Below, in pieces: positions 2,189 through 24,250 of a DNA stretch of 64,000 nucleotides. The DNA is taken from assembly GCF_026712245.1 (NCBI RefSeq), contig NZ_JAPPUY010000006.1:124001-188000 (forward strand), in the 5' to 3' direction. The DNA comes from Roseateles hydrophilus. GTDB taxonomy: Bacteria; Pseudomonadota; Gammaproteobacteria; Burkholderiales; Burkholderiaceae_C. The translations under genes were made by a program, and so were the position numbers. A model generated the notes under the pieces. The model ran no database searches. It was not told the origin of the DNA and saw only the letters and a program-made list of their open reading frames with translations. The stretch's first letter is position 1. Each line of letters starts with the position of its first letter.

Positions 2189-2707
2189 ATGAGTCGCGTG
2201 CAGTTGCGCGCGATGACTCCCGTCGATCTCGACGCCGTACTGGCGCTGCAACAGCGCTGCTACGGCGTCGACTTTTTGGAGCATCGCGATGCTTTCGCCG
2301 CCAAGCTGGCGGTGACCGAAGGGCTGGACTGCTGCTGGCTGGCCCGTCGTGAGGACGGCGAGCTGCTGGCCTATGCGGTCAGTTTGCCGGTCTGCGAGGC
2401 CACGCTGCCGGCGCTGGACGCGCCGCGCTGCGAGCGGCCGGCGCAACCGACGCTGCTGTACCTGCATGACATGGCCGTGGCACCTGAGGCGCGCTCGCTG
2501 GGGCTGGCCTCAGGCCTGCTGGCGCAGTTGAAGGAGCGGGCGCTCGCGCTGCACCTGCCGCAGATGGGCCTGGTGGCCGTGCAGGGCTCGGTGCCGTACT
2601 GGCAGCGCCAGGGTTTTGCCGAGCCGGCCGCGCTGGCGCCGGCGCTGCGGGCCAAGCTCGCCAGCTTCGGCGCCGACGCGCGCTTTCTGCTTCAGTCCTT
2701 CAGGTAG
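2189..2707 (+). CDS. GNAT family N-acetyltransferase
   Basis: A 172-residue protein with a GNAT fold pattern: an N-terminal MTPVDLDAVLALQ segment, central strands ending in LHDMAVAPEARSLGLASGLL (the acetyl-CoA binding region, with a degenerate R/Q-x-x-G-x-G/A loop), and a C-terminal V-x-x-S-V-P-Y-W-Q-R-Q-G-F segment typical of the family. The acceptor substrate cannot be told from sequence. It starts 6 bases after rhlE, so the two may be cotranscribed. Its last 16 bases overlap the end of the convergent GH5 gene. Confidence 0.8.
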   Translation: MSRVQLRAMTPVDLDAVLALQQRCYGVDFLEHRDAFAAKLAVTEGLDCCWLARREDGELLAYAVSLPVCEATLPALDAPRCERPAQPTLLYLHDMAVAPEARSLGLASGLLAQLKERALALHLPQMGLVAVQGSVPYWQRQGFAEPAALAPALRAKLASFGADARFLLQSFR

Positions 2708-3693
2708 GGCTTGAGCCAGCGCATCTGCGGCTTGTCCTTGCCGCCTTCGGGCTCCAGCGACAGGAAGTAGTCGCCCCAGGTCGGGCCGCCGGCCCACCAC
2801 AGCCAGCCGGTCCAGACGTCCGCGTTGGCTTGCAGATGCTTCAGCGCACCGGCCACCGCCTGCTCGCAGACGGCGTTGGCGCCACCGCCCAGTTCGCCCA
2901 GCAGCGCGCGGCGCTTGTTGGCCTTGAGCCATTGCGTGAAGCGCTGCAGCCGCTCGACGCCGATGGTGGGGCTGACGCATTCGGTGTGGGTGCCCGAGCC
3001 GTCCTTGTCGAGGTATTGATGCACCTCGAACACCATGTGGTCGAGTGGATCCTTCACGCGGCCCATGACATCGGCGTTGGGCGTGCCGTACCAGGTGCTT
3101 TCAAACCAGCTCCAGGCGCCCGTGTAGCCGTTGCCCGGCAGTGTGATGAGGTTCTTCGCGCCGGTTTGGCGGATGGCGTCGACGGCGGCCTGCGCGGCGT
3201 CGGCCCAGGTTTCGGTCGGCATGTTGCGCGGCTCGTTGACGAGGCCGAACTGCACGCGGGCGTTGTCCTTGAACTGCAGCGCCAGCCGGCGCCAGAAGTC
3301 GGCGAAGGCCGCGTGCGGCACCTCGGGGCGGCCGATGTGGACGTCCTTGTAGGCGGCGTAGTTGTGCGGGTCCAGCAGCACATGCAGGCCGCGTGCGGTC
3401 GTGCCGTCCACAAAGGCACGCAGCCGGGCCAGCTCGGTCGCGTCCAGCTCGCCCATCAGCACGGGCTGCAGCCGCTCCCAGCGGAACGCGATGCGCATGA
3501 GGTTCATGCCCTGGGCCTGGTAGTAGGCCGTGCTGGCAACGCTGGGGTAGACGTAGTCCTTGCCGTAGACGCCAGGGAAGGGCAGCTTCTCCCCCCATTC
3601 GGCGCTGGACAGGCTGATGCCGCGCCATTCCAGCGGTGCGGCGTGGGCAGCGGCCGCGGCGGCGAGCAGTGTGGAGGCGAGCAGGCGTTTCAT
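2692..3693 (-). CDS. Secreted glycoside hydrolase family 5 (GH5_5-like) endoglycanase
   Basis: A 333-residue protein with a Sec signal peptide (MKRLLASTLLAAAAAAHA). It cuts internal beta-1,4 bonds of glucan or glucomannan. NEPRNMPTETW holds the general acid/base Glu. The segment EVHQYLDKDGSGTHTEC followed by LLGELGG holds the nucleophile Glu. The HQYLD-x-D-x-SGTH pattern recalls subfamily GH5_5 endoglucanases. Its ATG overlaps the stop of the upstream epimerase gene as ATGA, making it the last gene of a three-gene operon with that gene and the SGNH esterase. A mannan-side role comes from context; cellulose-type activity is equally possible from sequence alone. Confidence 0.85.
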   Translation of the reverse strand: MKRLLASTLLAAAAAAHAAPLEWRGISLSSAEWGEKLPFPGVYGKDYVYPSVASTAYYQAQGMNLMRIAFRWERLQPVLMGELDATELARLRAFVDGTTARGLHVLLDPHNYAAYKDVHIGRPEVPHAAFADFWRRLALQFKDNARVQFGLVNEPRNMPTETWADAAQAAVDAIRQTGAKNLITLPGNGYTGAWSWFESTWYGTPNADVMGRVKDPLDHMVFEVHQYLDKDGSGTHTECVSPTIGVERLQRFTQWLKANKRRALLGELGGGANAVCEQAVAGALKHLQANADVWTGWLWWAGGPTWGDYFLSLEPEGGKDKPQMRWLKPYLKD

Positions 3694-4910
3694 GCGGCGG
3701 CTTTCGCGGGTGGTTGGATGCCGAGGGCGGCCAGCACGTCCTGGCAGGCACCCATCGTGTGGTAGTCGGTCTTGCCGGCGGGGCTCTTCTCGTCGGTGAG
3801 CTTGGCGTTGTCGGGGCCGAGGATGCGGTACCAGGCGCCGTGCTCGTGGTCGACGAAGTGCTGCCAGGCGTAGGCCCAGAGGCGGTCGTACCACTGCCAG
3901 TAGCCGGCGTCGCCGGTGCGCACGGCCAGCCAGGCGGCGGCGGCCAGGCTCTCGGCCTGCACCCAGAAATACTTGTCGCCGTCGCAGACGTCGCCATCGG
4001 GTGCGAAGCCGTAGACGAGGCCGCCGTGCACGGCGTCCCAGCCGCGCAGCATGGCGGTGTCGAAGAAGTGGCGGGCCGTGTGCACCAGCCAGCCGGGCGC
4101 GGCGCCGCCCAGGCGGCGGTCCAGCATCAGCAAGAGCTTGGCCCACTCGGTGAGGTGACCGGTCTGGAAGCCCCAGGGACGGAAGATGTTGGTCTTGTCG
4201 TCGCGGTTGTAGTCCCAGTCGGGCGTCCAGTCGGTGCGGTAGTGCTCCCAGACCAGCCCGCCGGCGAGCGACGCCTGGCGCTGCGTGATGGAGGTTGCCA
4301 GCGTCAGCGCACGATCCAGGTAGCGCGCCTCGCCGGTGGCGGCATGCGCGGCCAGCATGGCTTCGCAGGCGTGCATGTTGGCGTTCTGGCCGCGGTAGGG
4401 GCCGACCTGCCAATCGGGTGTGGCCTCGTCGGCGTAGAGGCCGTGGGCGGGCTCCCAGAAGCGGCGCTCCATCAGCTCGAAGGTCGCGGCGATGCCTTCG
4501 CGCGCGCCAGGCACGCCGGCCTCGGCCGCATGGGCGTTGGCCAGCAGCACGAAGGCCAGGCCGTAGCAGTGGTTGGTGCCGTCGGCGATGGTGGCGCGGC
4601 CGTCGTGCCAGTCCAGCACCCACGCGTAGCCGCCTTGAGGTTGCGCGTGCGCCGCGTTGACGAAGGCCAGCGCATGCGCCACGTCGCTCGTGGGGCCGCC
4701 GAACCAGCGCCAGGCCAGCGCATGGTTGAAGACGAAGCGCGTGCTGCTGACGAGGTGGCGGGTGCGGCGGTCATACACCGTGCCGTCGTCCTTGAAGAAC
4801 TGGAAGCAGCCGCCGCTCGGGTCCATCACGCGCGGCGCGTAGAAGGCCAGCGTGTGGCGCATGTGGGCCCACAGCGCGTCGGGGCGGCGCAGGTCGGGAA
4901 CAGCCGTCAT
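3690..4910 (-). CDS. AGE family sugar isomerase/2-epimerase, probably mannose isomerase
   Basis: A 406-residue cytoplasmic (alpha/alpha)6-barrel enzyme of the N-acylglucosamine 2-epimerase superfamily. Conserved segments are NHCYGLAFVLLA, RGQNANMHACEAMLAAH, GFQTGHLTEWAKLL and KTDYHTMGAC, which carry the ring-opening and proton-transfer His residues of the YihS/mannose-isomerase branch. With beta-mannosidase and a PfkB kinase in the same locus, the best reading is D-mannose to D-fructose isomerisation. Cellobiose/mannobiose 2-epimerase is an alternative. It is the middle gene of the operon, joined by ATGA overlaps to the SGNH esterase upstream (4907-4910) and GH5 downstream (3690-3693). Confidence 0.82.
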   Translation of the reverse strand: MTAVPDLRRPDALWAHMRHTLAFYAPRVMDPSGGCFQFFKDDGTVYDRRTRHLVSSTRFVFNHALAWRWFGGPTSDVAHALAFVNAAHAQPQGGYAWVLDWHDGRATIADGTNHCYGLAFVLLANAHAAEAGVPGAREGIAATFELMERRFWEPAHGLYADEATPDWQVGPYRGQNANMHACEAMLAAHAATGEARYLDRALTLATSITQRQASLAGGLVWEHYRTDWTPDWDYNRDDKTNIFRPWGFQTGHLTEWAKLLLMLDRRLGGAAPGWLVHTARHFFDTAMLRGWDAVHGGLVYGFAPDGDVCDGDKYFWVQAESLAAAAWLAVRTGDAGYWQWYDRLWAYAWQHFVDHEHGAWYRILGPDNAKLTDEKSPAGKTDYHTMGACQDVLAALGIQPPAKAAA

Positions 4911-7063
4911 TTCAATACCTCGGTCTGCAGGAAGCGGGTCAGCTCATCGGCCATCTGCGTGTGGACGTCGATGCGGGGGTGGGCGTAGGCGAAGGCCTGG
5001 AAGGTGTAGGTCCAGACGCGGGCATCGCCCTCGCCGCGCAGCGTCGCCACCGCCTGGCTCAGTGCGCGGGGGATGGCGGGTTCGTCCTTCCAGGCCGTCA
5101 TGCCGCCGGCCAGCAGCACCAGGCGGGCGTGCGGATAGCGTGCACGCAGGCTGCGCACGAAGGCCAGGTAGCGCGGCGCGAAGTCGGGGGCGATGCGCTG
5201 CCCCTTGGTGCCGGGGAAGCCATGGTCGTTCTGGCCGAGGTTGACGAACACGACATCGGGCGCACGCGGGTCGGGCGGGGCGACGGGCGCGTCCAGCCGC
5301 GGCGCGTAGCGGTCCCACACCTGGGGCATCAGCAGCTCGTTGAAGGTGGCCGTGATGCCGATGCCGCTGACGGCAATGCCGACGTAGTCGGCCCCCAGCC
5401 GCGCGGCGGTCAGCGCGCCGTAGGCCCGCGTGCCGTCGTGGGGGTAGAGGTCGTCGTACTGGTCGTCGCCCACATCGCCGTTGCAGGCGCCGGCGGTGAT
5501 GGAGTCGCCGTAAAACTCGAACTTCAACGGCCGTGCCGGCGGCGGGGCCAGCAGCGTGCCGCCGGGCGCCAAGTGCAGGCCGTGGAAGACGAGCTCGGAC
5601 ATCGGTGCCTCGGTGCGCTTGACGATGCGCAGCGTGTGTTCGCCGTCGCCGAGCGGCTCGCGCAGCCGCCAGGTCGTGCGGGCGTTGCCCGGCACGGCCA
5701 GCGGCAGCGTGCGGCCGTCGATCTCGACGGCGAGATGCGTCGTGCCCCAGTGCGTGGATGAAAACGCCAAGCTCAGCTCGCGGCCGGTGAAGCGCGCGCG
5801 CAGCTCGCTGCCGCTCCAGACCAGCAGCTTGGCATCCGGCGTGGCCGCCGGGGCGATGCGGCCGGCCCAGCGCAGCCGCGCGTCGCTGGCCGGGATGAGG
5901 CCGGGCCAGCCGGTGGGCGTGGTTTGCTCGAAGGCGCTGGCGCGCAGCGCGGGCGGCAGCAGGCCGGCGGTCATGACGGCCGCCATGCTCGCCGGGCGGC
6001 CGCTGCCAGCCCAGGTGTCGCGCTTCACGCGCACATGCAGCAGGTGGGCCGTGGGTTCCAGTCCTTGCCCGACGACGCGGTAATGCCAGCCCAGGTAGCC
6101 CCGGCGTTCAGGCACATGACCTTGCAGCGTGACCCAGGGGCCGTCGTCCACACGGGCTTCCAGGTTGCGATGGTGCTCGCTCTCGGCGTGGAAGACGGCG
6201 ACCTCGCTGCCCCAGACGAGAAAGCGGGCCTCGGCGTCGTCCTGCGTCGTGACCCAGCCGGGCTGCTGGCCGGGCCACTCGGGATGCACCGCGCCGCCGC
6301 GCATGAAGCCGTGGCTTTGGTATGGGTTGAGCGTGTCGCCCATGTGCAGGCGCGTGAACTCGTGGGCGCGGCCGCGCAGCGCAGCCGGCAGCGGCCGGGT
6401 GGCGTCGGCGGCGGGGCGGCGCAGCGTCTCGGCCAGGGCCTGGGCGATGCGCTGGTGGCCGGTGGCGTTGGGGTGCACGGGCTCGTCGTACAGCGCGGCC
6501 CAGCGGTCGGTGCCGGCGTCGACGCGGGCCTGCATCCAGCGGCCGAAGTCCAGCGCCGGCAGGCCGTAATGGGCGGCGAGCTGCAACTGCAGGTCGGTGG
6601 CGTCGCGCGGCTGGTTGCCTTGTTGCGTGAGGCCCAGCACGACGACGGCGGGGGCGCGCTTCGCGGTCAGCAGCCGGCGCAGCAGGGCCTCGTAGCTGCT
6701 GCCGCGCACGGCCGGGTCCAGCCACTGGTCATTGACGCCGAACTCGACGATGACGAGGTCGGGTTGCGCGTCCAGCAACTGCGCCTGCAGCCGGTGCGCA
6801 GCGGCGGCCGAGTCGGTGCCGCTGACGCCGGCATTCACCAGCCGCACCCGCGGCCCCAGCGAGCGCGCCAGCAGCGCCGCCCAGCCGTTCTCACGCGGCG
6901 GCTGGGCCGCGTAGCCGGTGGTGATGGACCCGCCGATGACGGCCAGCGTGACGGGCTCGCCCGCGTCCACGCGCTTCATGACGGCCTGCAGCGCCGTGTT
7001 CGCCGCGGCCACGGCCGGCAGCATCAGTGACAAGGCCAACCCCCATCCTTTCAACCAGTTCAT
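4907..7063 (-). CDS. Secreted protein with two SGNH esterase domains (CE2-like), likely mannan acetyl esterase
   Basis: 718 residues with a signal peptide ending near AANTAL. The first SGNH domain (about 35-225) has GGSIT with the nucleophile Ser near 46, GVND, and a terminal HPNATGH. The middle part (about 240-510) looks like beta-sandwich or CE2 N-terminal-type sequence. The second SGNH domain (about 514-718) has FYGDSITAG, LGQND and an AHPRIDVH end segment. SGNH enzymes remove acetyl groups from hemicelluloses. The ATG at 7063 was chosen because it begins the signal peptide and has GAGGGTGA upstream; the frame is open further upstream. First gene of the operon with AGE and GH5. Confidence 0.85.
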   Translation of the reverse strand: MNWLKGWGLALSLMLPAVAAANTALQAVMKRVDAGEPVTLAVIGGSITTGYAAQPPRENGWAALLARSLGPRVRLVNAGVSGTDSAAAAHRLQAQLLDAQPDLVIVEFGVNDQWLDPAVRGSSYEALLRRLLTAKRAPAVVVLGLTQQGNQPRDATDLQLQLAAHYGLPALDFGRWMQARVDAGTDRWAALYDEPVHPNATGHQRIAQALAETLRRPAADATRPLPAALRGRAHEFTRLHMGDTLNPYQSHGFMRGGAVHPEWPGQQPGWVTTQDDAEARFLVWGSEVAVFHAESEHHRNLEARVDDGPWVTLQGHVPERRGYLGWHYRVVGQGLEPTAHLLHVRVKRDTWAGSGRPASMAAVMTAGLLPPALRASAFEQTTPTGWPGLIPASDARLRWAGRIAPAATPDAKLLVWSGSELRARFTGRELSLAFSSTHWGTTHLAVEIDGRTLPLAVPGNARTTWRLREPLGDGEHTLRIVKRTEAPMSELVFHGLHLAPGGTLLAPPPARPLKFEFYGDSITAGACNGDVGDDQYDDLYPHDGTRAYGALTAARLGADYVGIAVSGIGITATFNELLMPQVWDRYAPRLDAPVAPPDPRAPDVVFVNLGQNDHGFPGTKGQRIAPDFAPRYLAFVRSLRARYPHARLVLLAGGMTAWKDEPAIPRALSQAVATLRGEGDARVWTYTFQAFAYAHPRIDVHTQMADELTRFLQTEVLK

Positions 7064-7211
7064 CTCATTCACCCTCGTTGGCGCTGGCCTGCAGCCGATC
7101 GTGTGGCGGGCCGCACCCGAGGCGGCCCGTGCGTCAGCGCGTGCGGCGCAGCGGCGATGCGGGAGCTGCATGGCGGCAGCAGGCCGGCGGATGGCGCTCC
7201 CGTTCTTCAGA

Positions 7212-7224
7212 TGTTTACTAAACG
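7212..7224. promoter_or_regulatory. Putative LacI-family operator, site A
   Basis: TGTTTACTAAACG is a 13-bp palindrome around a central C with one end mismatch. It lies between the divergent SGNH esterase (149 bases from its start) and beta-mannosidase (100 bases from its start). It matches the sites at 20165 and 21458, and the only LacI gene in the window is at 20319. Confidence 0.65.
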
Positions 7225-7323: not shown

Positions 7324-9936
7324 ATGCGCAACAAAACAATGTTTAGCTTTGCCTTTGGGTGGGGCAGGAGACGAGTCGCAGCCCTTGCGGTGCGGGCCTC
7401 CTGTCGCGTGCCTGATGCCCTGACGACGACCCCTGACGTGATCTCTCAACGACTGATCGACCTGCATGACGGCTGGCTGTTGGCCGAGGCGCCCGCTGGC
7501 GTGGACGGCGCGGCGCTCGCTGCGCTGCCCGCCGATGCTTGGCTGCCTGCGGCGGTGCCCGGCACGGCGCACGGCGCGCTGCTGGCCGCCGGCCGCATTC
7601 CCGATCCTTTCTACGGCCGCAACGAGCTGGAGGTGCGCTGGGTGGCCGAGCGCCGCTGGGTGTGGAAGCTGGCCTTCGACGCTGGCGAGCTGGCGGCGCG
7701 CGAAGAGCTGGTGTTCGAGGGCCTGGACACCTACTGCAGCGTCTGGCTGAACGGCGAGCGGCTGCTGCAGACCGACAACATGTTCGTGCCGCAGCGTGTG
7801 GACGTGCGCGAGCGCCTGCGGCCCGGGCGCAACGAGTTGCTGCTGTGCTTTGAGCCGGCGCTGGCGGAAGCGCGCAAGGTGGAGGCGGTGCATGGCAAGC
7901 GCGCGCTGTGGAACGGCGACAGCGCACGGCTGCATGCGCGCAAGGCGCAGTACCACTTCGGCTGGGACTGGGGCCCCGAGCTTGTCACCTGCGGCCCGTG
8001 GCGCGCGGTGCGGCGCGACAGCGCTTGCGGCCGAATTGCCGAGCTGCTGTGCCGCGCCGATGTGGCGGTGGCGCAGCGGGCGGCGACGCTGAGTGTCAGT
8101 GCGGTGCTGGTGGGTGCCGGCACGCGCTGCGTGTTCGAGCTGCTGGACCCCGAGGGCCGCCGCGTGGCGCTGTGCCCGGTGCCGGCGGCCGGCCCTGTGC
8201 AGGCCGTGCTGGCGGTGCCCGACGCGCAGCTGTGGTGGCCGCACGGCCTGGGCGGCCAGCCGCTGTACACGCTGCTGGCAACGCTGCAGGACGACGATGG
8301 CCAGGTGCTGGCGCAGGAGCGCCGCCGCATCGGGCTGCGTCGCCTGCGCCTGGTGCAGGACGAGGTGGCTGGCGAGGCGGGCCGCAGCTTCCACTTCGAG
8401 GTCAACGGCCGGGACTTCTTTGCCGGCGGCGCGAACTGGATTCCCGACGACAGCCTGCTGGAGCGCATCACGCCGGCCCGCTATCGCGAGCGCGTGGCGC
8501 AGGCCGCCGCCGCAAACATGACCATGCTGCGCATCTGGGGCGGCGGCATCTACGAGCACGAGGCCTTCTACGACGCCTGCGACGAGCTCGGCATCCTGGT
8601 GTGGCAGGACTTCATGTTCGCCTGCGGGCTGTATCCGGCCAACGAGGCCTTCCAGGCCAGCGTGCGTGCGGAGGCCCAAGCGCAGGTGAAGCGGCTGCGC
8701 CACCATGCCTGCCTGGCGCTCTGGTGCGGCAACAACGAGGACTACATGCTGGCCGAGTCCCAAGGGCTGGCCGGCCCAGGCGTTCCGGCCGAGCGTTTCG
8801 AGGCGCGGGCGATCTACGAGCGGCTGCTGCCCGAGGTTTGCGCCGCGCTCGACCCGGACCGCCCTTACTGGCCCGGCAGCCCGTTCACGCCGGGCGACGG
8901 CGCCTCGTCCTCAGACGCGACCGTGGGCGACCGCCACAGCTGGGAGGTCTGGCACCAGCAGATGCTGCCCTACCAGCGCTACGGCGATGTGCAGGCGCGC
9001 TTTGTCAGCGAGTTCGGCATGCAGTCGATGCCGTCGCTGGCGCTGTTCGAGTCTGTGCTGCCCGAGGGGGAGCGCTTCCCCGAGAGCCGCACCGTGCAAT
9101 GGCACAACAAGGCCGGGTCGCCCGCGGGGCCGGACGGACATCGCCGCCTGGCGGTCTACCAGGCCGACAACCTGCGCGTGGGCCCCACGCTGGCTGAGCA
9201 TGTGTACGCGACGCAGTTCGTGCAGGCCGAGGCCATGCGCGTGGCCTACCAGGACTTCCGCCGCCGCTGGCAGCGCCCGGGCGCGCGTGCCGTGGGCGGG
9301 GCGCTGGTGTGGCAGCTCAACGACTGCTGGCCGGTCACGAGCTGGGCACTGATCGACGCGGCCGGCATGCCCAAGCCGGCCTGGCATGTTGTGCGCCGGG
9401 CGTTGGCGCCGCTGGCTGTTGCCGTGCGGCTGGAGGCCGGCCAAGTGCGCCTGGCGGTCATGAATGGCGGCGTGGATGACATCGCGCTGACGCTGCGCCT
9501 GCGCGTGTACTCGCTGGCGGGGCAGCCATTGGCGGATGCCGACTTGCCGCACCTGGCGGCTGCGGGCTGCTGCGCGGAACTGGTGCAGGCCGTGGCGGCG
9601 GCCGCGGGCGATGGGCCCGTGGTGGCCGAGCTCTGCGCGCTGGACGGCGACGGTGCGGAGCTGGCGCGCGACTGCGCGTGGACCGAGCCCTTCAAGTTCT
9701 ACAGCTTGGCTGGTGCGCGCGTGCAGATCGGCGTTGAGGACGGGCGGCTGCGGCTGCAGGCCGATCGGCCGGTCAAGGGGCTGTGGTTGCAGGCCCGCGG
9801 CGTGTCGTTCGCCGACAACTTCATCGACCTGATGCCCAGAGAACCCCGCTGGCTGGATCAAAAGATAGCGTTACCATTTGTCATGGAGGCGGTTGCGTTG
9901 GACCACGCAATGCAACGTTTTGTGCTGCAGCCATAG
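7324..9936 (+). CDS. Beta-mannosidase, glycoside hydrolase family 2
   Basis: Up to 870 residues. It removes terminal beta-mannose from manno-oligosaccharides. The sugar-binding jelly roll runs from about residue 40 to 210 with HFGWDWGPE. The TIM-barrel part shows RIWGGGIYE, then LWCGNNEDYM with the acid/base Glu, and RFVSEFGMQS with the nucleophile Glu; a C-terminal beta domain follows. All these match GH2 beta-mannosidases. The start is uncertain: the ATG at 7324 has GAGAAACAG in front, but the family N-terminus begins only at VISQRLIDLHDGW, where an in-frame GTG lies at 7438. No clear signal peptide is seen, so it is probably cytoplasmic or periplasmic. Confidence 0.9.
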   Translation: MRNKTMFSFAFGWGRRRVAALAVRASCRVPDALTTTPDVISQRLIDLHDGWLLAEAPAGVDGAALAALPADAWLPAAVPGTAHGALLAAGRIPDPFYGRNELEVRWVAERRWVWKLAFDAGELAAREELVFEGLDTYCSVWLNGERLLQTDNMFVPQRVDVRERLRPGRNELLLCFEPALAEARKVEAVHGKRALWNGDSARLHARKAQYHFGWDWGPELVTCGPWRAVRRDSACGRIAELLCRADVAVAQRAATLSVSAVLVGAGTRCVFELLDPEGRRVALCPVPAAGPVQAVLAVPDAQLWWPHGLGGQPLYTLLATLQDDDGQVLAQERRRIGLRRLRLVQDEVAGEAGRSFHFEVNGRDFFAGGANWIPDDSLLERITPARYRERVAQAAAANMTMLRIWGGGIYEHEAFYDACDELGILVWQDFMFACGLYPANEAFQASVRAEAQAQVKRLRHHACLALWCGNNEDYMLAESQGLAGPGVPAERFEARAIYERLLPEVCAALDPDRPYWPGSPFTPGDGASSSDATVGDRHSWEVWHQQMLPYQRYGDVQARFVSEFGMQSMPSLALFESVLPEGERFPESRTVQWHNKAGSPAGPDGHRRLAVYQADNLRVGPTLAEHVYATQFVQAEAMRVAYQDFRRRWQRPGARAVGGALVWQLNDCWPVTSWALIDAAGMPKPAWHVVRRALAPLAVAVRLEAGQVRLAVMNGGVDDIALTLRLRVYSLAGQPLADADLPHLAAAGCCAELVQAVAAAAGDGPVVAELCALDGDGAELARDCAWTEPFKFYSLAGARVQIGVEDGRLRLQADRPVKGLWLQARGVSFADNFIDLMPREPRWLDQKIALPFVMEAVALDHAMQRFVLQP
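9863..9876. promoter_or_regulatory. Possible LacI/GntR-type half-conserved operator inside the beta-mannosidase 3' end
   Basis: AGATAGCGTTACCA fits TGnTAnCGnTAnCA except for the first base. Its centre is 146 bp upstream of the better site at 10009, close to a whole number of helical turns. It may be coincidence because it lies in coding sequence. Confidence 0.3.
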
Positions 9937-10022: not shown

Positions 10023-10105
10023 AAACGGGTTGAGGCCATGAGCCGCCAACCGCGGCATCGCGCCCGCCAGGGCCGGTGCTTCCCACCAAAGAGGAGACAA
10101 CCAGG

Positions 10106-13100
10106 ATGAGACATTTCAGACAGACAACCTTGTCATTGGCGGCAGCCCAGGCCTTGATGGTCTTGGCCATGCCGGCCATGGCTCAGCAGGCGCCTGCCGC
10201 CGCGGCGTCGGCGCCGGGCAAGTCGCAGCAACTGGAGACCGTCGTCGTCTCTGGCCAGCGTGCAGCGCTGCAGTCGGCGCAGAAGCTCAAGCAGGAGTCC
10301 GACGAGATCGTCGACTCCATCGTGGCTGACGACATCGGCAAGCTGCCGGACCGTTCGGTCTCCGAGGTGTTGCAGCGCATCGTCGGCGTGACGATGGACC
10401 GCGTGCTGTCGCGTGGCGACCCGATGCGGGTGTCCGTGGAGGGCTCGGGCGTCATCATCCGTGGCCTGACCTATGTGTCCTCGCAGCTCAACGGCCGCGA
10501 GAGCTTCTCTGCCAACGGGGGGCGCGGCCTGAGTTTCGAGGACGTGCCGCCCGAGCTGATGGCGGGCGTGGACGTCTACAAGAACCCGTCCGCCGAACAG
10601 ATCGAAGGGGCCATCGGTGGCCTGGTGAACCTGCGCACGGCGCTGCCCTTTGACTACAACGGCTTCAAGGCCAGCCTGAGCGGCTCGCTGACGAAGAACG
10701 TGCTGCGTGGCAACCAGAAGCCGACCGTCTCCGGCCTGCTGGCCAACACGTGGAACACGGACCTGGGCAAGATCGGCCTGCTCGTGCATGCCGCGCACTC
10801 CGAGAGCTCGACGCGCACGGACGGCATGGTGGTGGACCCGTACTTCCGCGAGGTGGTGCGCTGGAATCGCCCCGAGGACACGAACAACGCCTACTACCGC
10901 CCGACTGCCGAGAACCACTGGTTCCCCAAGGCCGTGGGCTGGCAATCGCTCGCGTTCGACCGCACGCGCAAGGGCACCTACGCCGCCGCGCAATGGAAGA
11001 AGGACACGCTGCAGGCCGCGGCGACCTTCTTCCGTTCCAAGTACGACTTCTACTGGGATGAAAGCTCCATCGCCAGCCAGGCAGATCCGTACTCGTCGCT
11101 GGTGTCGAACGCCAAGTGGGGCAGCAACGGCGCGCTGCTGACGGGCACGCTCACCGACCCGCAGAAGGGCGGCATCCCCTTCAATGCGAACACGCGCTTC
11201 TCCACGAGCGGTTCGGACACGAAGGAGTCGACCTTCAACGTGATCTGGACGCCGACGGCGCAGTGGCGCATCGTCAATGACTTCCAGTTCATCGAGTCCG
11301 AGACGGGCACGTTCGACTCGACGGTGGCGACCGGCATCAACATGCCCAAGGAAACCCTGGACCTCAGCGGCGACATGCCGCGCCTGGTGCTGGACGCGGC
11401 GGACCGGGCCTACCTGGCCGATCCGTCCAAGTACTACTGGGGCTTCACGATGGAGCGCCTGTCGGAGAGCAAGGCCAAGCAGAAGGCGTGGAAGGGCGAC
11501 GTCAAGTACACCTTTGACCACCCGGTGCTCTATGACGTGCGCTTCGGCCTGCGCCTCACCGACCGCGACGTGACCAACAAGGTGCCGCGTTGGTACAACT
11601 GGCAGGCCGTGTCGCAGACGTGGCAATCCGCCGAGTTCGATCAGGGCGCCATCGGCCAGAGCTGGGACTGGCACCCGATCAAGAGCCTGGCGTACCTGAA
11701 CCGCTTCGGCGGCGAGACGCAGGTCAAGTCGTTCAACAACTTCATGAACGGCAAGAACAACGTCGCGTCGCTGGTGCTGCCGAAGATGGCGGTGGCGGCG
11801 AACTACCCCGACTCCTACGCGCTGCTGCACAGCTACTACACCACGCTGTGCGAGGAGTACAAGGCCGAGAAGATCTCCAAGGGCGGCTCGCCTGGCAACA
11901 GCTGTGCCCCGGCGTTCACGCCGCCTGTGGCCGGCACGATTTCGCCGCGCGACAACACGCAGCAGGAGACCACCAAGGCGGCCTATGCGCAGCTGCGGTT
12001 CGGGTTTGACGAGTGGGGCGTGCCGGTCGACGGCAATGCGGGTCTCCGCGTCGTCAACACCAACTACAAGTCGGCGGGCTACCAGTCGCTGAACTACCAG
12101 GCGACCGCCGCCGTGACCGGCACCCTCACGGGCGGCCCGATCCCGGTCTTCACGTCCTACCGCCGGCCGATCGAGGTGGACAACAGCTACACCGATGTGC
12201 TGCCCAGCCTCAACCTGCGTTGGAAGTTCAACGACAAGATGCAGCTGCGGTTCGCGTTCGCGAAGGCGCTCGCGCGTCCTGACCTGAGCGCGCTGCAGCC
12301 CAACCTGATCCTGGATGCCGGCAGCGCCACCATCCGGACGACGGTGGACGAGACGGTGACGCCGGCTGTGCGTGAGAACGTGGTGACCGACCTCCGCAAC
12401 CGCGGCCAGGCTTTGGGCAACCCGACCTTGAAGCCGGTCAAGTCCGACCAGTTCGACCTGTCGGCCGAGTGGTACATCGACAAGGCCAGTTCGGTCACGA
12501 TGGCGGCCTTCAACAAGCAGCTGAAGGACGTGATCGTCAACCAGGTGGGCATCCTCACGGCGGCAGACACCACCGGCAAGGTACACGAGTTCGCCTACTC
12601 GACGCAGGTCAACGGTGCCAAGGGTTGGGCGCGTGGCGTGGAGCTGTCAGCGCAGCACTACTTCAACGGCCTGCCGGGCTTGCTGGCCGGTTTGGGTGTG
12701 CAGGCCAATGTGACCTACGTGGACAGCAAGCAAAAGCGCTACAACGCCGTCGGCAACGAGTGGTGCAGCAGCGCCAGCGATGGCCGCAACCTGAACCTGT
12801 TCGTCAACGGTTGCGACACCAACGGCCAGTCCTACGGTGACCATCCGCTGCCCAACCTGTCGCGCAAGGCGTTCAACGTGGCGGTGCTGTACGACCACGG
12901 CCCGATCTCGGCGCGTGTGGCTTACGCCTGGCGTGGCAAGTACATGAACGGCGTGGCCTTCCCGGACAACACCGGCCCGAACCAGACCAACGGCCTGGAT
13001 GGCAATCCGAACAGCAAGCAGTACGGCCGCAACAACATGCCGCTGGGTTTGCCGATCTGGACGGATGCCTTTGGCCAGCTGGACCTGGGCGTGCAGTACC

Positions 13101-13314: not shown

Positions 13315-13350
13315 GGGGTACTGTTTCAGCGACAACAAGAGGGTGCGCCC

Positions 13351-19140: not shown

Positions 19141-19159
19141 GTCGAAGCGGTGGGCAGGG

Positions 19160-20122
19160 TCAAGGGAAGGGCGGCAGCGCCAGCAGGGCGTCACGCCATG
19201 GGGACAGGGCTTGCGGGTGGGCCGGCAGAGGCCCTCGCACGCCACAGATGAAGGCCGCATAGCGGTTGGCCAGCGACAGCGTCGCGGCCAGGTCGCGACG
19301 CAGCGCCAGGCCGGCCAGCAGCAGGGCCGTGAAGGCATCGCCCGCGCCGACGGTGTCCACCAGCGCCGGCTGGGGTTCACCCGGGCCGTGCGCCAGCACC
19401 GTGCCGCCCGGGCCGTAGAAGCGCCAGCCGTCGGCGCCCAGCGTCAGCACCACGCGCTGCAGCGCGAAGCGGTCCATCAGCGCCGCCACCTGGCGGGCTT
19501 CCTGGCCTGCGGTCGGGGTCGCGGTCGCGCTTGCGGTCGGGGTGTTCGGCAGGTCGAACCATGCAGCCAGCCGGGCGAGTTCGTCGTCGTTGACCTTGAG
19601 CCAGTCGGCCAGCATCAGCGACTCGGCGGCGAGCAGCGCATCGTCGGTGCCGGGGCGCAGGTTGAGGTCCAGCAGGCGCAGGCCGGTGAAGGGCTTGACC
19701 AGCGCGCGCAGCGCGGCGCGCGAGGCCGGGTGGCGCTGCGCGAGGCTGCCGAAGTACAGCAGGTCAGCCGGTGTGCCAGCCAGCGCAGCGCGGGCGGCGG
19801 GCAGATCCAAGTGGTCCCAGGCGGCGTCGGCGTGGATCTCGAAGCGGTGGCCGCCGCCGGGGTGTTCGTGCACGCTGACGCGGCCGGTGGCGTGCGCGGC
19901 ATCGCGCTGCAGGCCGGCGAGGCTCAGGCCGTAGCGCGTGGCGTTGTCCTGCACCTGCCGGCCGTTGTCATCGGCGGCGCCGATGCGGCTGATGAACAGC
20001 ACGTCGGCGCCCAGCGCCGCCAGCGAGCGCGCCACGTTGAAGGGCGCGCCGCCGGCCACCGGGCCGTCATGGAATTCGTCCACCAGGGCTTCGCCCAGGA
20101 CGGCAAGGGAGCGGGAAGGCAT
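19160..20122 (-). CDS. PfkB family carbohydrate kinase, fructokinase-like
   Basis: A 320-residue ribokinase-fold kinase. The N-terminal GEALVDEF and GGAPFNVARSLAALG bind sugar, and DTVGAGDAFTALLLAGL is the PfkB signature with the catalytic Asp and anion hole. Fructose is the likely substrate because of the mannose-isomerase-like enzyme in the same regulon. A short insert rich in Thr/Ala repeats (TPTASATATPTAG, near residue 190) is unusual. The first gene of the operon with GH1, it lies 42 bases from the operator at 20165. The ATG at 20122 was preferred to an upstream TTG. Confidence 0.85.
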   Translation of the reverse strand: MPSRSLAVLGEALVDEFHDGPVAGGAPFNVARSLAALGADVLFISRIGAADDNGRQVQDNATRYGLSLAGLQRDAAHATGRVSVHEHPGGGHRFEIHADAAWDHLDLPAARAALAGTPADLLYFGSLAQRHPASRAALRALVKPFTGLRLLDLNLRPGTDDALLAAESLMLADWLKVNDDELARLAAWFDLPNTPTASATATPTAGQEARQVAALMDRFALQRVVLTLGADGWRFYGPGGTVLAHGPGEPQPALVDTVGAGDAFTALLLAGLALRRDLAATLSLANRYAAFICGVRGPLPAHPQALSPWRDALLALPPFP

Positions 20123-20164
20123 GCGCAAAAGGTGCGGAAATGAAATTTCTGCCGCAACAATAAA

Positions 20165-20177
20165 TGTTTAGTGAACA
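20165..20177. promoter_or_regulatory. Putative LacI-family operator, site B
   Basis: TGTTTAGTGAACA is a 13-bp palindrome with one internal mismatch. It lies between the divergent pfkB (-) and lacI (+) genes, 42 bases upstream of the kinase start, well placed to block its promoter. Confidence 0.68.
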
Positions 20178-20287: not shown

Positions 20288-20300
20288 AAGGCACTAAACA
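20288..20300. promoter_or_regulatory. Possible half-site for LacI autoregulation
   Basis: Read on the minus strand this is TGTTTAGTGCCTT: the left half of the operator is intact and the right half is not. It ends 18 bases before the lacI start codon. Confidence 0.3.
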
Positions 20301-20318
20301 ACAGCGGGAGTTCGCGGC

Positions 20319-21362
20319 ATGGCCGACAAACGAGGGGTGACGATTCGCGAGCTTGCGCAGGCCGCCGGGGTGTCCATCGGCACCGTGTCGCGCGCGCTCA
20401 AGGGTCAGCCGGGCCTGTCGGAGCAGACGCGTTCCCAGGTGCTGGAGGTGGCCGGGCAACTGGGCTACGACACCGCCAAGCTGCGCACCGGCAAGCCGCG
20501 GCGCATGCTGTTCCTGTACAGCCGCAGCATCGGCTCGTTGGCCACCAACCCTTTCTATTCCTACGTGCTGCATGGCGCCGAGACGGCGTGCCGCGAGGCC
20601 GGCGTGCCGCTGAGCATCATGTCGGTGCTGGCCGGCGAGGACATCGCCGGCCTGGTGCGTCGGCACGAGGCGGACGCGCTGCTCGTGGCTGGCTACATCG
20701 AGTCGGAGGCGATGGAGGCGGTGCGGCGCTGCGAGTTGCCGCTGGTGCTGGTGGACCACTTCTACCCCGGCGTGCGCTGCGTCAACGACGACAACCTGCG
20801 CGGCGGCTGGCTGGCCACGCAGCACCTGCTGGACGGGCAGGCTCAGCGCATCGCGGCCATCTTCGGCCCCATGGTGCATTACTCGGTGTCGCTGCGGGCC
20901 AAGGGCTTCCGGCGTGCGCTGTTCGAGGCCGGGCGCCTGTTCGACCCCGACTACGAGGTGGTGCTGGACCCGTCGCTGGAGTACCGCGACGCCGGCCGCG
21001 ACGCGATGCGCCGCCTGCTGGAGTTGCCCAACCCGCCGGACGCGGTGTTTGCCTACAACGACTCCACGGCCATGACGGCCATCGAGTACTGCCGGGAGCG
21101 CGGCCTGCGCGTGCCTGAGGACATCCGCTTCGTCGGCTATGACGACATCGAGGCCGCCGCCCACTGCAAGCCGCCGCTGACCACGGTCAAGATGGATAAG
21201 GAAGCGCTGGGCCATGTGGCCGCGCGCGCGCTGATCGAGGGCGACGTGGCGCCCAACGAGGCCTCGCTGCCGGTGGAGCTGGTGGTGCGCGACAGCTCGG
21301 TGCCTGCCACGCCCGCCGTGGCGCGCAAGCCCCGGCGCCAGGCAGCCGCAGCGACGTCCTGA
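20319..21362 (+). CDS. LacI family transcriptional regulator of the mannan locus
   Basis: A 347-residue repressor-type protein. An N-terminal helix-turn-helix TIRELAQAAGVSIGTVSRAL, a hinge around residue 55, and a periplasmic-binding-like sensor domain with DALLVAGYI, VFAYNDSTAMTAIEYCRERG and IRFVGYDDIE are visible. A short basic and Ala-rich tail follows. It is divergent from pfkB-GH1 and adjacent to the GPH transporter and GH27 genes. The shared palindromes at 7212, 20165 and 21458 are its most likely operators; the inducer would be a mannan-derived sugar. Both points are inference. Confidence 0.92.
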   Translation: MADKRGVTIRELAQAAGVSIGTVSRALKGQPGLSEQTRSQVLEVAGQLGYDTAKLRTGKPRRMLFLYSRSIGSLATNPFYSYVLHGAETACREAGVPLSIMSVLAGEDIAGLVRRHEADALLVAGYIESEAMEAVRRCELPLVLVDHFYPGVRCVNDDNLRGGWLATQHLLDGQAQRIAAIFGPMVHYSVSLRAKGFRRALFEAGRLFDPDYEVVLDPSLEYRDAGRDAMRRLLELPNPPDAVFAYNDSTAMTAIEYCRERGLRVPEDIRFVGYDDIEAAAHCKPPLTTVKMDKEALGHVAARALIEGDVAPNEASLPVELVVRDSSVPATPAVARKPRRQAAAATS

Positions 21363-21457: not shown

Positions 21458-21470
21458 TGTTTACTAAAAC
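21458..21470. promoter_or_regulatory. Putative LacI-family operator, site C
   Basis: TGTTTACTAAAAC keeps the left half and most of the right half of the 13-bp palindrome. It lies 45 bases upstream of the GPH transporter start. The rest of the 153-base gap after lacI shows no gene. Confidence 0.6.
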
Positions 21471-21515: not shown

Positions 21516-23015
21516 ATGCTTGCCAACAGCGACGGCGCCACGGCGCCCCTGATGCCGCAACGCCCGGGCGCTGCTCGAACGGCTGTGGCGTCGCCCTCGC
21601 CAGCCCCGGCCGATGCCGCCGACGACCGCGTGCCGATGGCGCAGAAGGTCGGTTTCGGGCTGGGCTCCTTCCACGACATGTGGGGCCACTGGCTCTACCA
21701 GTCGCTGGTGTTCCATGTGTTCAACATCGGCCTGGGCGTGGCGCCGCAGCTGATTTCGATGGCCATGGGCATCAAGATCTTTGCGGACGCGGTGTCGGAC
21801 GCGCTGTTCGGCTGGATCTCCGACAACACCCGCAGCCGCTGGGGGCGGCGGCGCCCCTTCATCCTCGTCGGCGGCATCCTGACGGGCATCGGCCTGCCGC
21901 TGCTGTTCGCGGTCGGGCGGGGCTGGAGCGACACCGAGTACTTCATCTTCCTGCTCGTCTCGACCTGCCTGTACGCGCCGGTGATGAGCTGCTTCGCGAT
22001 GCCCTGGAACAGCCTGGGCGCCGAACTGACGCCGGGCTACCACGAGCGCACGCGCGTGATGTCCATCAAGAACGCGATCCAGAAGATTCCCGAGCTGGGC
22101 ATGTTCGTCGCCGCGCAGTTCACAACGCTCTGGTTCTTCCACGATGCGTCCGGCAAGCCCGACATCCTGCTGGGGGCCCAGGTCTACACCAGCATCCTGG
22201 GCGGCATCCTGGTGGTGCTGGCCATCGCCATCTTTTCGCTGACGCGCGAGCGCTACTACGAGAGCTTCGTCGCGCAGAGCCGCCAGCGCGTGCCCTTCAA
22301 GGACACGCTCTACCGCACGCTGAAGAACAAGCCCTTCCGCCTGATGCTGGGCACCATGCTGACCTACAACATGGCCACGGCCATGGTGGGCCTGCTCGGC
22401 TACTACGCGACCGTCTACTACGTCTGCGGCGGCAATGTCGTGGAGGCCACCAAGTGGAACTCGCTGATGGGCGTGGCCGGCCTCGTCAGCGGCCTGGCCG
22501 GCATCGCCTTCGCGGGCTGGGTGGCCAGGCGCTGGGGTAAGCGCAATGCGCTGATGACCGTGCTGTGGCTGGGCATCGCCGCGTTCATTGGCGACTGGTT
22601 CTTCTACAACCCGCAGCTGCCGTGGCTGCAGCTGTTTGCCAGCGGCGGCGTGGCCTTCATCGGCGCGGGCTTCTGGACCATCTACGGCTCGGCCATGGCC
22701 GACGTCATCGACCACGACGAGCTCGCCACCGGCCAGCGCCGCGAGGGCTCGTTCGCGGCCTGTGGTTCGTGGATCAGCAAATGCGGCCTGGCCCTGGGCA
22801 ACAGCGCCTCGGGCTGGGTGCTGGCCTTCACCGGCTTCGACGCCAAGCTGCCCGTCCAGGGCGAGGAGGCCATCTTCCTGATCCGCGTCTGCCTGTCCGG
22901 CATTCCCATCGTGGGTTTGCTGATCGCGCTGGTCGTCGTGTCGCGCTACTTCCTGACCGAGCAGCGCATGCACGACATCCGCGCCGCGCTGGAAGCCCGC
23001 CGCGGCACCGTCTAA
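21516..23015 (+). CDS. GPH family (MFS) sugar:cation symporter
   Basis: A 499-residue inner-membrane transporter with about twelve hydrophobic segments after a 40-residue Ala/Pro-rich N-terminus. GFGLGSFHDMWGHWL opens the membrane domain. FADAVSDALFGWISDNTRSRWGRRRPF is the glycoside-pentoside-hexuronide family loop with the conserved D-x-x-x-D and R-x-G-R-R-R. It would import mannose, galactose or short manno-oligosaccharides with protons or sodium. The ATG at 21516 follows AAGGAG. The GH27 gene starts 17 bases after its stop, so the two form an operon behind operator C. Confidence 0.88.
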   Translation: MLANSDGATAPLMPQRPGAARTAVASPSPAPADAADDRVPMAQKVGFGLGSFHDMWGHWLYQSLVFHVFNIGLGVAPQLISMAMGIKIFADAVSDALFGWISDNTRSRWGRRRPFILVGGILTGIGLPLLFAVGRGWSDTEYFIFLLVSTCLYAPVMSCFAMPWNSLGAELTPGYHERTRVMSIKNAIQKIPELGMFVAAQFTTLWFFHDASGKPDILLGAQVYTSILGGILVVLAIAIFSLTRERYYESFVAQSRQRVPFKDTLYRTLKNKPFRLMLGTMLTYNMATAMVGLLGYYATVYYVCGGNVVEATKWNSLMGVAGLVSGLAGIAFAGWVARRWGKRNALMTVLWLGIAAFIGDWFFYNPQLPWLQLFASGGVAFIGAGFWTIYGSAMADVIDHDELATGQRREGSFAACGSWISKCGLALGNSASGWVLAFTGFDAKLPVQGEEAIFLIRVCLSGIPIVGLLIALVVVSRYFLTEQRMHDIRAALEARRGTV

Positions 23016-23032
23016 CCCGAAAGGAGTTCTCC

Positions 23033-24250
23033 GTGATCTTTTCCTGGCTGCGCCCAACGTTGCTGGCCCTGCTGACCTGTACTGCCGCCTCGGCCGCGCA
23101 GGCGCAGATCGGCCACGAAACCCTCAAGCTCGACGCCCCCAAGCCCATGCTCGCACCCACGCCGCCCATGGGCTGGAATTCGTGGAACAAGTTCAAGTGC
23201 GACGTCAGCGAGAAGCTGATCCGCGAACAGGCCGACGCCATGGTGGCCTCCGGCATGAAGGCCGCCGGCTACCAGTACATCGTCATCGACGACTGCTGGC
23301 AGAAGAGCCGCGACGCCGACGGCAACATCCAGCCCGACCCCGAGCGCTTCCCCAGCGGCATGAAGGCGCTGGCCGACTACGTGCACAGCAAGGGCCTGAA
23401 GTTCGGCCTCTACTCCGATGCCGGCGCGCTGACCTGCGGCGGCCGCCCGGGCAGCGCCGGCCATGAGTTCCAGGACGCACGCCAGTACGCCAAGTGGGGG
23501 GTGGACTACCTCAAGTACGACTGGTGCTACACCGGCCCGCGCAACCCTGAAGCGGCCTACACCATCATGGCCAAGGCGCTGCGCGAGTCTGGCCGCGACA
23601 TCGTGCTGTCCATCTGCGAGTGGGGCAACAGCCGCCCCGGCCGCTGGGCCGCGCCGGTGGGCCACCTGTGGCGCACCACGGGCGACATCTGGGATGCCTG
23701 GAAGGGCAAGAAGGAGTGGTCGCACGGCATGCTGGACATCCTCGACATGAACGCCGACCTGTGGAGCGAGGCCGGCCCCAACGGCTGGAACGACCCCGAC
23801 ATGCTGGAGGTCGGCAACGGTGGCATGACGCACACCGAGTACGTCAGCCACTTCTCGCTGTGGGCCATGCTGGCCGCGCCGCTGATCGCGGGCAACGACC
23901 TGTCGAAGATGGACGAGCCCACGCGCCGCATCCTGACCAACGCCGAGGTCATCCGTGTCGACCAGGACCCGCTGGGCCGCCAGGGCCGGCGCATCTGGCG
24001 CCAGGGCGACCTGGAGATCTGGGTGCGCCCGCTGGCCGGCGGCGACCGTGCCGCTGTGCTGTTCAACCGCGGCGACAAGCCGGCCGACATGGCCGTGACC
24101 TGGGATCAGCTCGACCTGCCGGCGCGGCTCAAGGCCGACGTGCTGGATCTGTGGTCGGGCAAGAAGACCCCGGCCGTCGCCGGGCGCCATGGCGGCACGG
24201 TGGCGCCGCATGGCGTGCTGATGTTCCGCATCTCGCCCGTGACCCACTGA
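23033..24250 (+). CDS. Secreted alpha-galactosidase, glycoside hydrolase family 27
   Basis: 405 residues with a signal peptide ending in AAQAQ. It removes alpha-1,6-galactose side groups from galactomannan. Landmarks are TPPMGWNSWNKF, VIDDCWQ, FGLYSDAG, YLKYDWC with the nucleophile Asp, SICEWG and WNDPDMLEVGN with the acid/base Asp; a C-terminal beta domain ends near residue 400. The start is a GTG at 23033 preceded by AAAGGAG at the normal distance. It is the second gene of the operon with the GPH transporter. Confidence 0.92.
   Translation: MIFSWLRPTLLALLTCTAASAAQAQIGHETLKLDAPKPMLAPTPPMGWNSWNKFKCDVSEKLIREQADAMVASGMKAAGYQYIVIDDCWQKSRDADGNIQPDPERFPSGMKALADYVHSKGLKFGLYSDAGALTCGGRPGSAGHEFQDARQYAKWGVDYLKYDWCYTGPRNPEAAYTIMAKALRESGRDIVLSICEWGNSRPGRWAAPVGHLWRTTGDIWDAWKGKKEWSHGMLDILDMNADLWSEAGPNGWNDPDMLEVGNGGMTHTEYVSHFSLWAMLAAPLIAGNDLSKMDEPTRRILTNAEVIRVDQDPLGRQGRRIWRQGDLEIWVRPLAGGDRAAVLFNRGDKPADMAVTWDQLDLPARLKADVLDLWSGKKTPAVAGRHGGTVAPHGVLMFRISPVTH

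What the first reader, a model, noticed from the sequence alone, without database searches (positions are those of the whole stretch)
2692..24250. A mannan-use regulon joined by a shared 13-bp palindrome
Seen: TGTTTACTAAACG (7212), TGTTTAGTGAACA (20165) and TGTTTACTAAAAC (21458) stand upstream of three transcription units that carry SGNH-AGE-GH5, GH2, PfkB-GH1 and GPH-GH27 genes, and a half-site lies before the lacI start. Known: GH2 beta-mannosidase, GH27 alpha-galactosidase and SGNH esterases act on acetylated galacto/glucomannan. Inference: the LacI protein at 20319 binds this palindrome and controls all units. An odd-centred operator without the usual central CG is uncommon for LacI proteins.
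Basis: partly seen in the sequence, partly recalled or inferred. Interest (0 to 1): 0.7.

Follow-up and report, generated by a model that had tools for sequence, protein, structure and literature searches.

The report
Mannan sugar-use switch, unusual LacI operator
A bacterium appears to switch on its plant-mannan-eating genes with a LacI-family repressor whose DNA-bending hinge is four amino acids short and which reads an unusual odd-centred DNA palindrome, conserved in many related bacteria and much like one known from lactose repressors of lactic acid bacteria.

Summary
In detail: the three palindromes are at 7212, 20165 and 21458, with a half-site before lacI. TGTTTASTRAAC is exact at only 4 places in the 4.77-Mb genome: two in the window, one before a second secreted GH5 gene, one before an MFS gene. 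In 14 Roseateles-type loci aligned with the window, TGTTTAGTGAACA before pfkB/lacI and TGTTTACTAAA before the GPH gene do not vary. A looser form lies before most orthologous lacI genes of Burkholderia and Paraburkholderia, where the operon is lacI-AGE-pfkB. The LacI protein is the likely binder; binding is untested. AGE is nearest to D-mannose isomerases, so the route is probably mannose -> fructose -> fructose 6-phosphate, and the substrate acetylated galactoglucomannan. New here: this LacI clade has 4 residues in the hinge where canonical paralogues have 8 (80 of 80 orthologues), and its operator lacks the central CG. That operator class is in print for 'EbgR-like' LacI proteins (LacR of Lactobacillus delbrueckii has almost the same sites), but the window protein lacks their insertion and groups apart, though a sister relation is not rejected. 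Ordinary kind of regulon; new variant of a known kind of repressor.

The parts
2692..3693 (-). GH5 endo-beta-glucanase-type gene (start judged from the ATG after the overlap with AGE; the open frame runs to 4623)
   Evidence: Pfam PF00150; nearest solved structures are cellulases such as 5hnn; signal-like N-terminus by eye
3690..4910 (-). AGE-family gene, nearest to D-mannose isomerases
   Evidence: PF07221; NCBIfam D-mannose isomerase 205 bits, under its cut-off of 600; 3gt5 and 5x32 at E 1e-155 and 1e-138 against 1e-11 for the best cellobiose 2-epimerase; the PDB names of these two say 2-epimerase, that 5x32 is a mannose isomerase is recalled
4907..7171 (-). SGNH + CE2 esterase gene, first gene of the leftward unit
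   Evidence: PF13472 and PF17996; NCBIfam acetylxylan esterase/glucomannan deacetylase AxeC2 87 bits, below cut-off 500
7212..7224 (.). operator 1, between divergent SGNH and GH2 genes; next to a promoter-like -10 CATAAT on the minus strand
   Evidence: GTTTASTAAAC kept in 5 of 5 genomes in a region that otherwise drifts; promoter-like match 7258-7231
7324..9936 (+). GH2 beta-mannosidase gene
   Evidence: PF22666; the 11 best solved structures are beta-mannosidases, 5n6u E 2.8e-140
10076..13252 (+). TonB-dependent receptor gene, possibly same unit as GH2
   Evidence: TIGR01782 594 bits, above cut-off 310
13297..14907 (+). tryptophan-halogenase-family gene 1
   Evidence: PF04820
14904..16451 (+). 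tryptophan-halogenase-family gene 2
   Evidence: PF04820
17755..19161 (-). GH1 beta-glucosidase gene (start approximate)
   Evidence: TIGR03356 597 bits, above cut-off 478.5; nearest 8puo
19160..20128 (-). PfkB sugar kinase gene, nearest to fructokinase
   Evidence: PF00294; 2qhp fructokinase E 1.4e-24; NCBIfam fructokinase 66.9 bits, below cut-off 450
20165..20177 (.). operator 2, 37 bp before pfkB and about 148 bp before lacI
   Evidence: TGTTTAGTGAACA invariant in 15 of 15 aligned rows
20292..20301 (.). half-site CACTAAACAA just before lacI
   Evidence: CTAAACA invariant in 15 of 15 rows
20319..21362 (+). lacI-family regulator with a hinge 4 residues short (LGYDTAKLRTGKPRR)
   Evidence: PF00356 and PF13377; hinge comparison
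21458..21470 (.). operator 3, 46 bp before the GPH transporter gene
   Evidence: TGTTTACTAAA invariant in 15 of 15 rows
21516..23015 (+). GPH sugar:cation symporter gene
   Evidence: PF13347; TIGR00792 180.8 bits, below cut-off 231
23000..24250 (+). GH27 alpha-galactosidase gene (start approximate; open frame from 22565)
   Evidence: PF16499 and PF17801

Best explanation
The LacI protein at 20319 is a local repressor of a galactoglucomannan/mannoside regulon. It binds, as a dimer, an odd palindrome of about 17 bp, ATTGTTTA-S-TAAACAAT, at three places in the window (before SGNH-AGE-GH5 and GH2-TBDT-halogenases; before PfkB-GH1; before GPH-GH27), a half-site at its own gene, and perhaps a site before a second GH5 gene 92 kb before the window. 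When glycan breakdown yields the inducer (most likely mannose or fructose, the sugars of the AGE and PfkB genes that are linked to this lacI in most of the clades seen) the protein lets go. Hydrolysis then gives mannose and glucose; the AGE protein turns mannose into fructose and PfkB phosphorylates it. Because the hinge lacks four residues, the protein cannot place the usual hinge helix at a central CG step, which fits an operator with a single central C or G. Shown here by sequence: sites, their conservation, hinge length, gene families. Inferred: binding, repression, inducer, route, role of the hinge.
For: 12-bp sites rare genome-wide and placed before the units. In five genomes GTTTASTRAA lies at 25 distinct places; 16 of them are at the three homologous regulon positions. 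Window + 14 Roseateles-type loci: 13 and 11 invariant bases in two otherwise drifting intergenic regions. Among the 80 named relatives kept of 495, the best 15-bp match within 300 bp before lacI is >=12 in 16/16 Roseateles-type, 30/48 Burkholderia/Paraburkholderia (47/48 at >=11; Markov control 0.6% and 4%) and 2/4 others; none of 41 permuted palindromes does as well in those three sets, the best reaching 7, 18 and 0. Recognition residues are as constant as the site: IG..R in 74 of 80, VG 5, SG 1. AGE is linked in 48/48 and PfkB in 47/48 Burkholderia/Paraburkholderia loci, by similarity to the L070 genes, which Pfam names. Enzyme assignments.
Against: No binding or expression data. By count alone the 10-mer core is not far above the reversed control (32 against 22 strand-matches in five genomes). 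In Burkholderia/Paraburkholderia the left half is degenerate (TTTTACTAWACAA). In the Rhizobacter/Piscinibacter/Sphaerotilus/Leptothrix set only 1 of 11 has a site within 300 bp of lacI, where 1 of 41 permuted palindromes does as well; 6 of the 12 have it 1.04-1.09 kb upstream, L053 has one after lacI, and L057, L058, L060 and L100 showed none. Both Silvimonas loci lack a site and AGE/PfkB. Of seven further relatives five have a short hinge and a site at >=11 of 15, L183 has a short hinge and no site, L185 was not read. The MFS-gene site is absent in 3 of 3 congeners with that gene, and the full palindrome before the second GH5 is absent in 3 of 3 (only half-sites). NCBIfam scores of AGE, PfkB, CE2 and GPH are below the curated cut-offs.
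Confidence: 0.86

Rival explanations
1. Another transcription factor, not this LacI, binds the palindrome; LacI sits in the region by chance or has its own CG-centred operator.
For: No binding experiment. LacI operators usually have a central CG (PMC4052901), and this one has none.
Against: In Burkholderia/Paraburkholderia, of the window genes searched for only lacI, AGE and PfkB kin were found, yet a form of the palindrome is there, before lacI. The site and the recognition helix are both near-constant. A missing central CG is what Francke et al. saw where the hinge residues are missing (PMC2329647).
Confidence: 0.08
2. The protein is simply a member of the EbgR-like LacI subfamily (EbgR, LacR, GalR, RafR) and nothing about it is separate.
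For: Same operator class: L. delbrueckii LacR sites TTG TTT ACT AAA AAT and TTG TTT AGT AAA CGG in a table of Francke et al.. Four of seven EbgR-like genes fetched here have TTTASTAA 33-70 bp before the gene. The data do not reject a clade of both groups (AU p 0.376, hinge and insert columns left out).
Against: It lacks the two-residue insertion before helix 3 that marks them, keeps a hinge Leu, and forms its own group (100/100) apart from the EbgR-like group (100/99); but the fork between them is weak (79/88) and E. coli LacI falls on the EbgR side. Its nearest named families are RbsR 158 bits and CytR 149, EbgR only 96.
Confidence: 0.2
3. The conserved palindrome is a promoter or RNA element, not an operator.
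For: It lies close to promoters; a promoter-like match ends 7 bp from it at 7258-7231.
Against: Odd dyad symmetry kept at three different genes and at variable distances from them.
Confidence: 0.04

Closest known systems
EbgR-like LacI-family repressors (EbgR; LacR, GalR, RafR of lactic acid bacteria)
   Same: Odd operator with a single central C or G and no CG pair; sites of L. delbrueckii LacR are nearly identical to those here (PMC2329647). Altered hinge.
   Different: They carry an insertion before helix 3 and are said to lack the hinge Ala/Leu; the window protein has no insertion and instead has a clean four-residue gap with a Leu kept. Separate group in the tree, sister relation not rejected; different sugars.
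Canonical LacI/GalR repressors with the YxPxxxAxxL hinge (LacI, PurR, RbsR, GalR)
   Same: Domain order, TVSR recognition helix, whole-protein similarity (RbsR best).
   Different: They have 8 residues between hinge Tyr and Leu against 4 here; Pro and Ala of the motif are missing. LacI-family operators are mostly even with a central CG.
ManR-type LacI regulators of mannose/mannosides (listed in Ravcheev et al. 2014, Table 1)
   Same: Same pathway class by name (passage seen).
   Different: Their sequences and motifs were not compared here.

Membership tests
LacI/GalR family | N-terminal LacI HTH plus periplasmic-binding-protein-like sensor domain | tested here: met
   PF00356 44 bits (cut-off 27), PF13377 114 bits; AlphaFold model, mean pLDDT 87.3
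Canonical (YPAL) LacI/GalR | YxPxxxAxxL hinge, 8 residues between Tyr and Leu | tested here: not met
   GYDTAKL: 4 residues, no Pro/Ala at the motif places; 4 in 80 of 80 named orthologues (77 by the first pattern, L053, L106, L109 by the second); 8 in 24 of 24 parsed paralogues of 30 fetched
Canonical (YPAL) LacI/GalR | even palindrome with central CG | tested here: not met
   window sites are odd, centre TA-S-TA or TA-S-TG
EbgR-like LacI | conserved insertion before helix 3 | tested here: not met
   17 residues from TVSR to TR as in PurR; EbgR and the 7 EbgR-like rows have about 19, counted by eye
EbgR-like LacI | hinge Ala and Leu lacking | tested here: inconclusive
   the motif Ala is missing; a Leu is present after the four-residue gap
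EbgR-like LacI | operator with single central C/G, no CG pair | tested here: met
   that the protein binds it is inferred
EbgR-like LacI | falls in the EbgR-like clade | tested here: inconclusive
   own group 100/100, but one group with EbgR-like not rejected, AU p 0.376
D-mannose isomerase (AGE superfamily) | sequence group of mannose isomerases rather than 2-epimerases | tested here: inconclusive
   best structures 3gt5, 5x32, far ahead of cellobiose 2-epimerases; NF051846 is the best NCBIfam model, 205 bits, but below its cut-off 600. That 5x32 is a mannose isomerase is recalled
D-mannose isomerase (AGE superfamily) | mannose to fructose activity | not testable with these tools
   needs assay

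The most novel reading that the evidence does not exclude
A second, separate LacI lineage has lost the hinge-helix intercalation used by nearly all LacI proteins. By deleting one helical turn (four residues) and loading the rest with arginine/lysine (4 basic residues in the 8 after the hinge Leu in 70 of 79 read; paralogues have 1 in 16, 2 in 7 and 3 in 1 of 24), it reads the A/T-rich centre TTTA-S-TAAA through the minor groove with an arm instead of a helix, and so converged on the same operator as EbgR-like repressors.
Probability: 0.3. Interest if true: 0.66.

Novelty: new variant of a known kind. Interest (0 to 1): 0.48.

Why it matters
It gives a natural comparison for how the LacI hinge sets operator geometry: same fold, four residues fewer, no central CG, odd centre, and two groups with the same kind of DNA target. 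It also proposes a regulator and site for mannose/glucomannan use in Roseateles and for the lacI-AGE-pfkB operons of Burkholderia and Paraburkholderia.

Tried and rejected
Structural comparison by VIA-align was not available. The first orthologue extraction ignored strand and was discarded (redone). One script read two of seven distant loci in a wrong frame; one of them, L184, was read, L185 was not. Promoter scans at operators 2 and 3 found nothing. Considered and rejected: that the MFS gene at G000:C6 is a secure regulon member (its site is absent in three congeners); that the palindrome is merely a promoter box; that the AGE protein is a cellobiose 2-epimerase. Convergence with EbgR-like proteins is left open (AU p 0.376). 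Literature searches that could have met this regulator; no listed title or shown start of abstract describes it; full texts were not read beyond those named.
Full report
Observation. With one mismatch allowed, the window holds the 13-bp pattern at these three places only; shuffles give 0.10 matches on average and none of 100 reached 5. In the whole genome (G000, 4.77 Mb) TGTTTASTRAAC is exact at 4 places: two in the window (7212, 20165), one at C10:31554, about 170 bp before a second secreted-looking GH5 gene (L015:9727-11241), and one at C6:370297, about 130 bp before an MFS gene (L016:8023-9165). With one mismatch there are 14 strand-matches at 10 distinct places, against 4 matches for the reversed pattern.

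Genes. Pfam, NCBIfam and solved-structure searches give: SGNH+CE2 esterase, AGE nearest to D-mannose isomerases, GH5 of the endoglucanase type, GH2 beta-mannosidase, TonB-dependent receptor, two tryptophan-halogenase-family proteins, GH1 beta-glucosidase, PfkB nearest to fructokinase, LacI, GPH symporter and GH27 alpha-galactosidase. Of the NCBIfam matches only the TonB receptor and GH1 pass their curated cut-offs. The second GH5 is nearest to Cel5A entries such as 3amc, recalled as a Thermotoga enzyme acting on glucan and mannan. A mix of endoglucanase, beta-glucosidase, beta-mannosidase, alpha-galactosidase and acetyl esterase points to acetylated galactoglucomannan more than to pure mannan; no protein nearest to a mannanase was met among those scanned. 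AGE plus PfkB would give mannose to fructose to fructose 6-phosphate. This route is inference from families.

Conservation within the genus. In G030, G156, G238 and G084 the 10-mer GTTTASTRAA recurs at the same three positions: before GH2, between pfkB and lacI, and before GPH. Of 25 distinct places in five genomes (window genome included), 16 are at these positions, one of them (G238:C27:26899) at the GH2 gene start. The total, 32 strand-matches, is not far above the reversed control, 22, and in G030 (6 against 9) and G084 (4 against 7) below it: for this short core the evidence is where it lies. Aligning the window with 14 named loci (L037-L049, L052; L050 and L051 were left out as more distant) shows TGTTTAGTGAACA invariant in 15 of 15 rows before pfkB/lacI, CTAAACA invariant just before lacI, and TGTTTACTAAA invariant before GPH. 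Before GH2 the palindrome GTTTASTAAAC is kept in 5 of 5 while most of the region drifts, and a -10-like ATTAT beside it is kept in 4 of 5 (promoter-like match). Scans at the other two operators found no promoter match.

Conservation beyond the genus. Of 299 genomes of the family 16 (own included) have a relative at E <= 1e-40, 13 of them with the short hinge and 3 canonical. One scan of named genomes returned the 80 best of 495 relatives. A 17-bp odd-centred palindrome is near many of these lacI genes. Within 300 bp before lacI the best 15-bp match is >=12 in 16 of 16 Roseateles-type, 30 of 48 Burkholderia/Paraburkholderia, 1 of 11 Rhizobacter/Piscinibacter/Sphaerotilus/Leptothrix (L100 skipped, too short) and 2 of 4 others; Markov controls 0 to 0.6%. 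None of 41 permuted palindromes reaches the real count in the first, second and fourth sets; in the third one does. Burkholderia/Paraburkholderia sites read TTTTACTAAACAA and TTTTACTATACAA, so the left half is weaker; at >=13 of 17, 36 of 48 have one and 13 have two, 90 bp apart in 11 and 100-101 in 2. In six of the 12 Rhizobacter-type loci the site is 1.04-1.09 kb upstream; in L054 it stands 28 bp before the called start (GTG) of a gene of 342 codons with no Pfam match that runs up to lacI. Linked genes within the flanks held: AGE in 2 of 16, 9 of 12, 48 of 48 and 2 of 4; PfkB in 12 of 16, 0 of 12, 47 of 48 and 2 of 4. L041, L043 and L046 have neither in this search, GH1 lying nearer lacI. 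In the window's genus AGE lies in the SGNH unit, mostly outside the flanks. In a sample of 398 genomes of the phylum 8 have a close relative: the window's own, 6 of the same order and 1 outside it. Of these 7 new loci five have a short hinge and a site at >=11 of 15, L183 has a short hinge and no site, L185 was not read.

The hinge. Between the Tyr of LGY and the hinge Leu the window protein has 4 residues (DTAK). 80 of 80 named orthologues have 4 (77 by the first pattern, L053, L106 and L109 by the second), and 24 of 24 paralogues parsed out of 30 fetched from five genomes have 8. E. coli LacI, PurR, GalR and RbsR also have 8; EbgR has 7. The 8 residues after the Leu hold 4 basic ones in 70 of 79 read, 3 in 7 and 5 in 2; paralogues have 1 in 16, 2 in 7 and 3 in 1 of 24. 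The AlphaFold model (33 rows, mean pLDDT 87.3) shows no helix at residues 49-62, where confidence is low (mean 62 for 51-60); without a canonical control this says little. Two canonical paralogues in relatives (L159, L161) have even, CG-centred TTGAAAGCGCTTTCAA upstream; most other paralogues showed no clear palindrome of either kind.

What is known. Ravcheev et al. 2014: 1251 of 1303 LacI regulators have even motifs, 1173 with central CG, 4% odd (PMC4052901; abstract, section 9 and passages seen). Francke et al. 2008: EbgR-like LacI proteins lack hinge Ala/Leu and their operators have a single central C or G; L. delbrueckii LacR O1 TTG TTT ACT AAA AAT and O2 TTG TTT AGT AAA CGG (PMC2329647; sections 7, 9 and passages). 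The YPAL motif is in about 60% of LacI/GalR linkers and its presence tracks classes of DNA ligand (PMC3875437, passages; also PMC3877293 and PMC13056197, passages). Camas et al. 2010 call exceptions to the hinge/CG union rare (PMC2978694, passages). So the link between hinge and operator centre is known; the four-residue-deletion clade was not met in these passages.

Same class or same clade. A tree of 37 proteins puts 14 short-hinge proteins in one group (100/100) and 8 EbgR-like in another (100/99); the fork between is weak (79/88) and has E. coli LacI on the EbgR side. With the insert and hinge columns removed, holding both groups together costs 5.0 log units, AU p 0.376: not rejected. Short-hinge proteins have no insertion before helix 3. 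EbgR-like genes fetched from plasmid-collection records have TTTASTAA 33-70 bp before the gene in 4 of 7. So: it works like an EbgR-type system by its site, and is not shown to be a member.

Results against. Outlying sites not conserved, missing sites in Silvimonas and in some Rhizobacter/Piscinibacter-type loci, the 10-mer control and enzyme scores below curated cut-offs are told above. No binding, expression or sugar data exist here.

Verdict. A real, conserved regulon with a well-supported regulator; the operator type is known from another LacI group; the four-residue hinge deletion that goes with it here is the part a specialist would look at.

Noticed in passing
L016:9263-9278: An even, CG-centred palindrome CTGAAAGCGTTTTCAG lies about 18 bp from the odd palindrome (9297) before the MFS gene; it resembles TTGAAAGCGCTTTCAA before paralogous lacI genes (L159, L161), so that gene may answer to two LacI proteins.
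   Followed up: partly
L015:9634-9655 and upstream regions in L199-L201: Second-GH5 orthologues keep two everted half-sites, TAAACA ... TGTTTA, 4-9 bp apart, 43-93 bp before the match start, in 4 of 4 genomes, while the full palindrome is only in the window's genome.
   Followed up: partly
window 7340-7346: A TGTTTAG half-site inside the first codons of the GH2 gene; TGTTTA is kept in 5 of 5 genomes; it may be coding constraint.
   Followed up: no
window 21363-21430: A conserved block (TAGGTGTTTGCACCGC in many relatives, altered in the window) follows the lacI stop before operator 3; unexplained.
   Followed up: no
window 13297-16451: Two tryptophan-halogenase-family genes beside a TonB-dependent receptor in a glycan locus; their role there is unknown to me.
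   Followed up: no
L054:8964-9992, L087:8946-10007: A gene of about 350 codons with no Pfam match precedes lacI in Rhizobacter and Leptothrix, just after the palindrome.
   Followed up: partly
L054:15214-16464 and relatives: A Gig2-like (PF07350) gene lies next to the AGE gene in 8 of the 12 Rhizobacter/Piscinibacter/Sphaerotilus/Leptothrix loci (L054-L058, L060, L087, L094).
   Followed up: no
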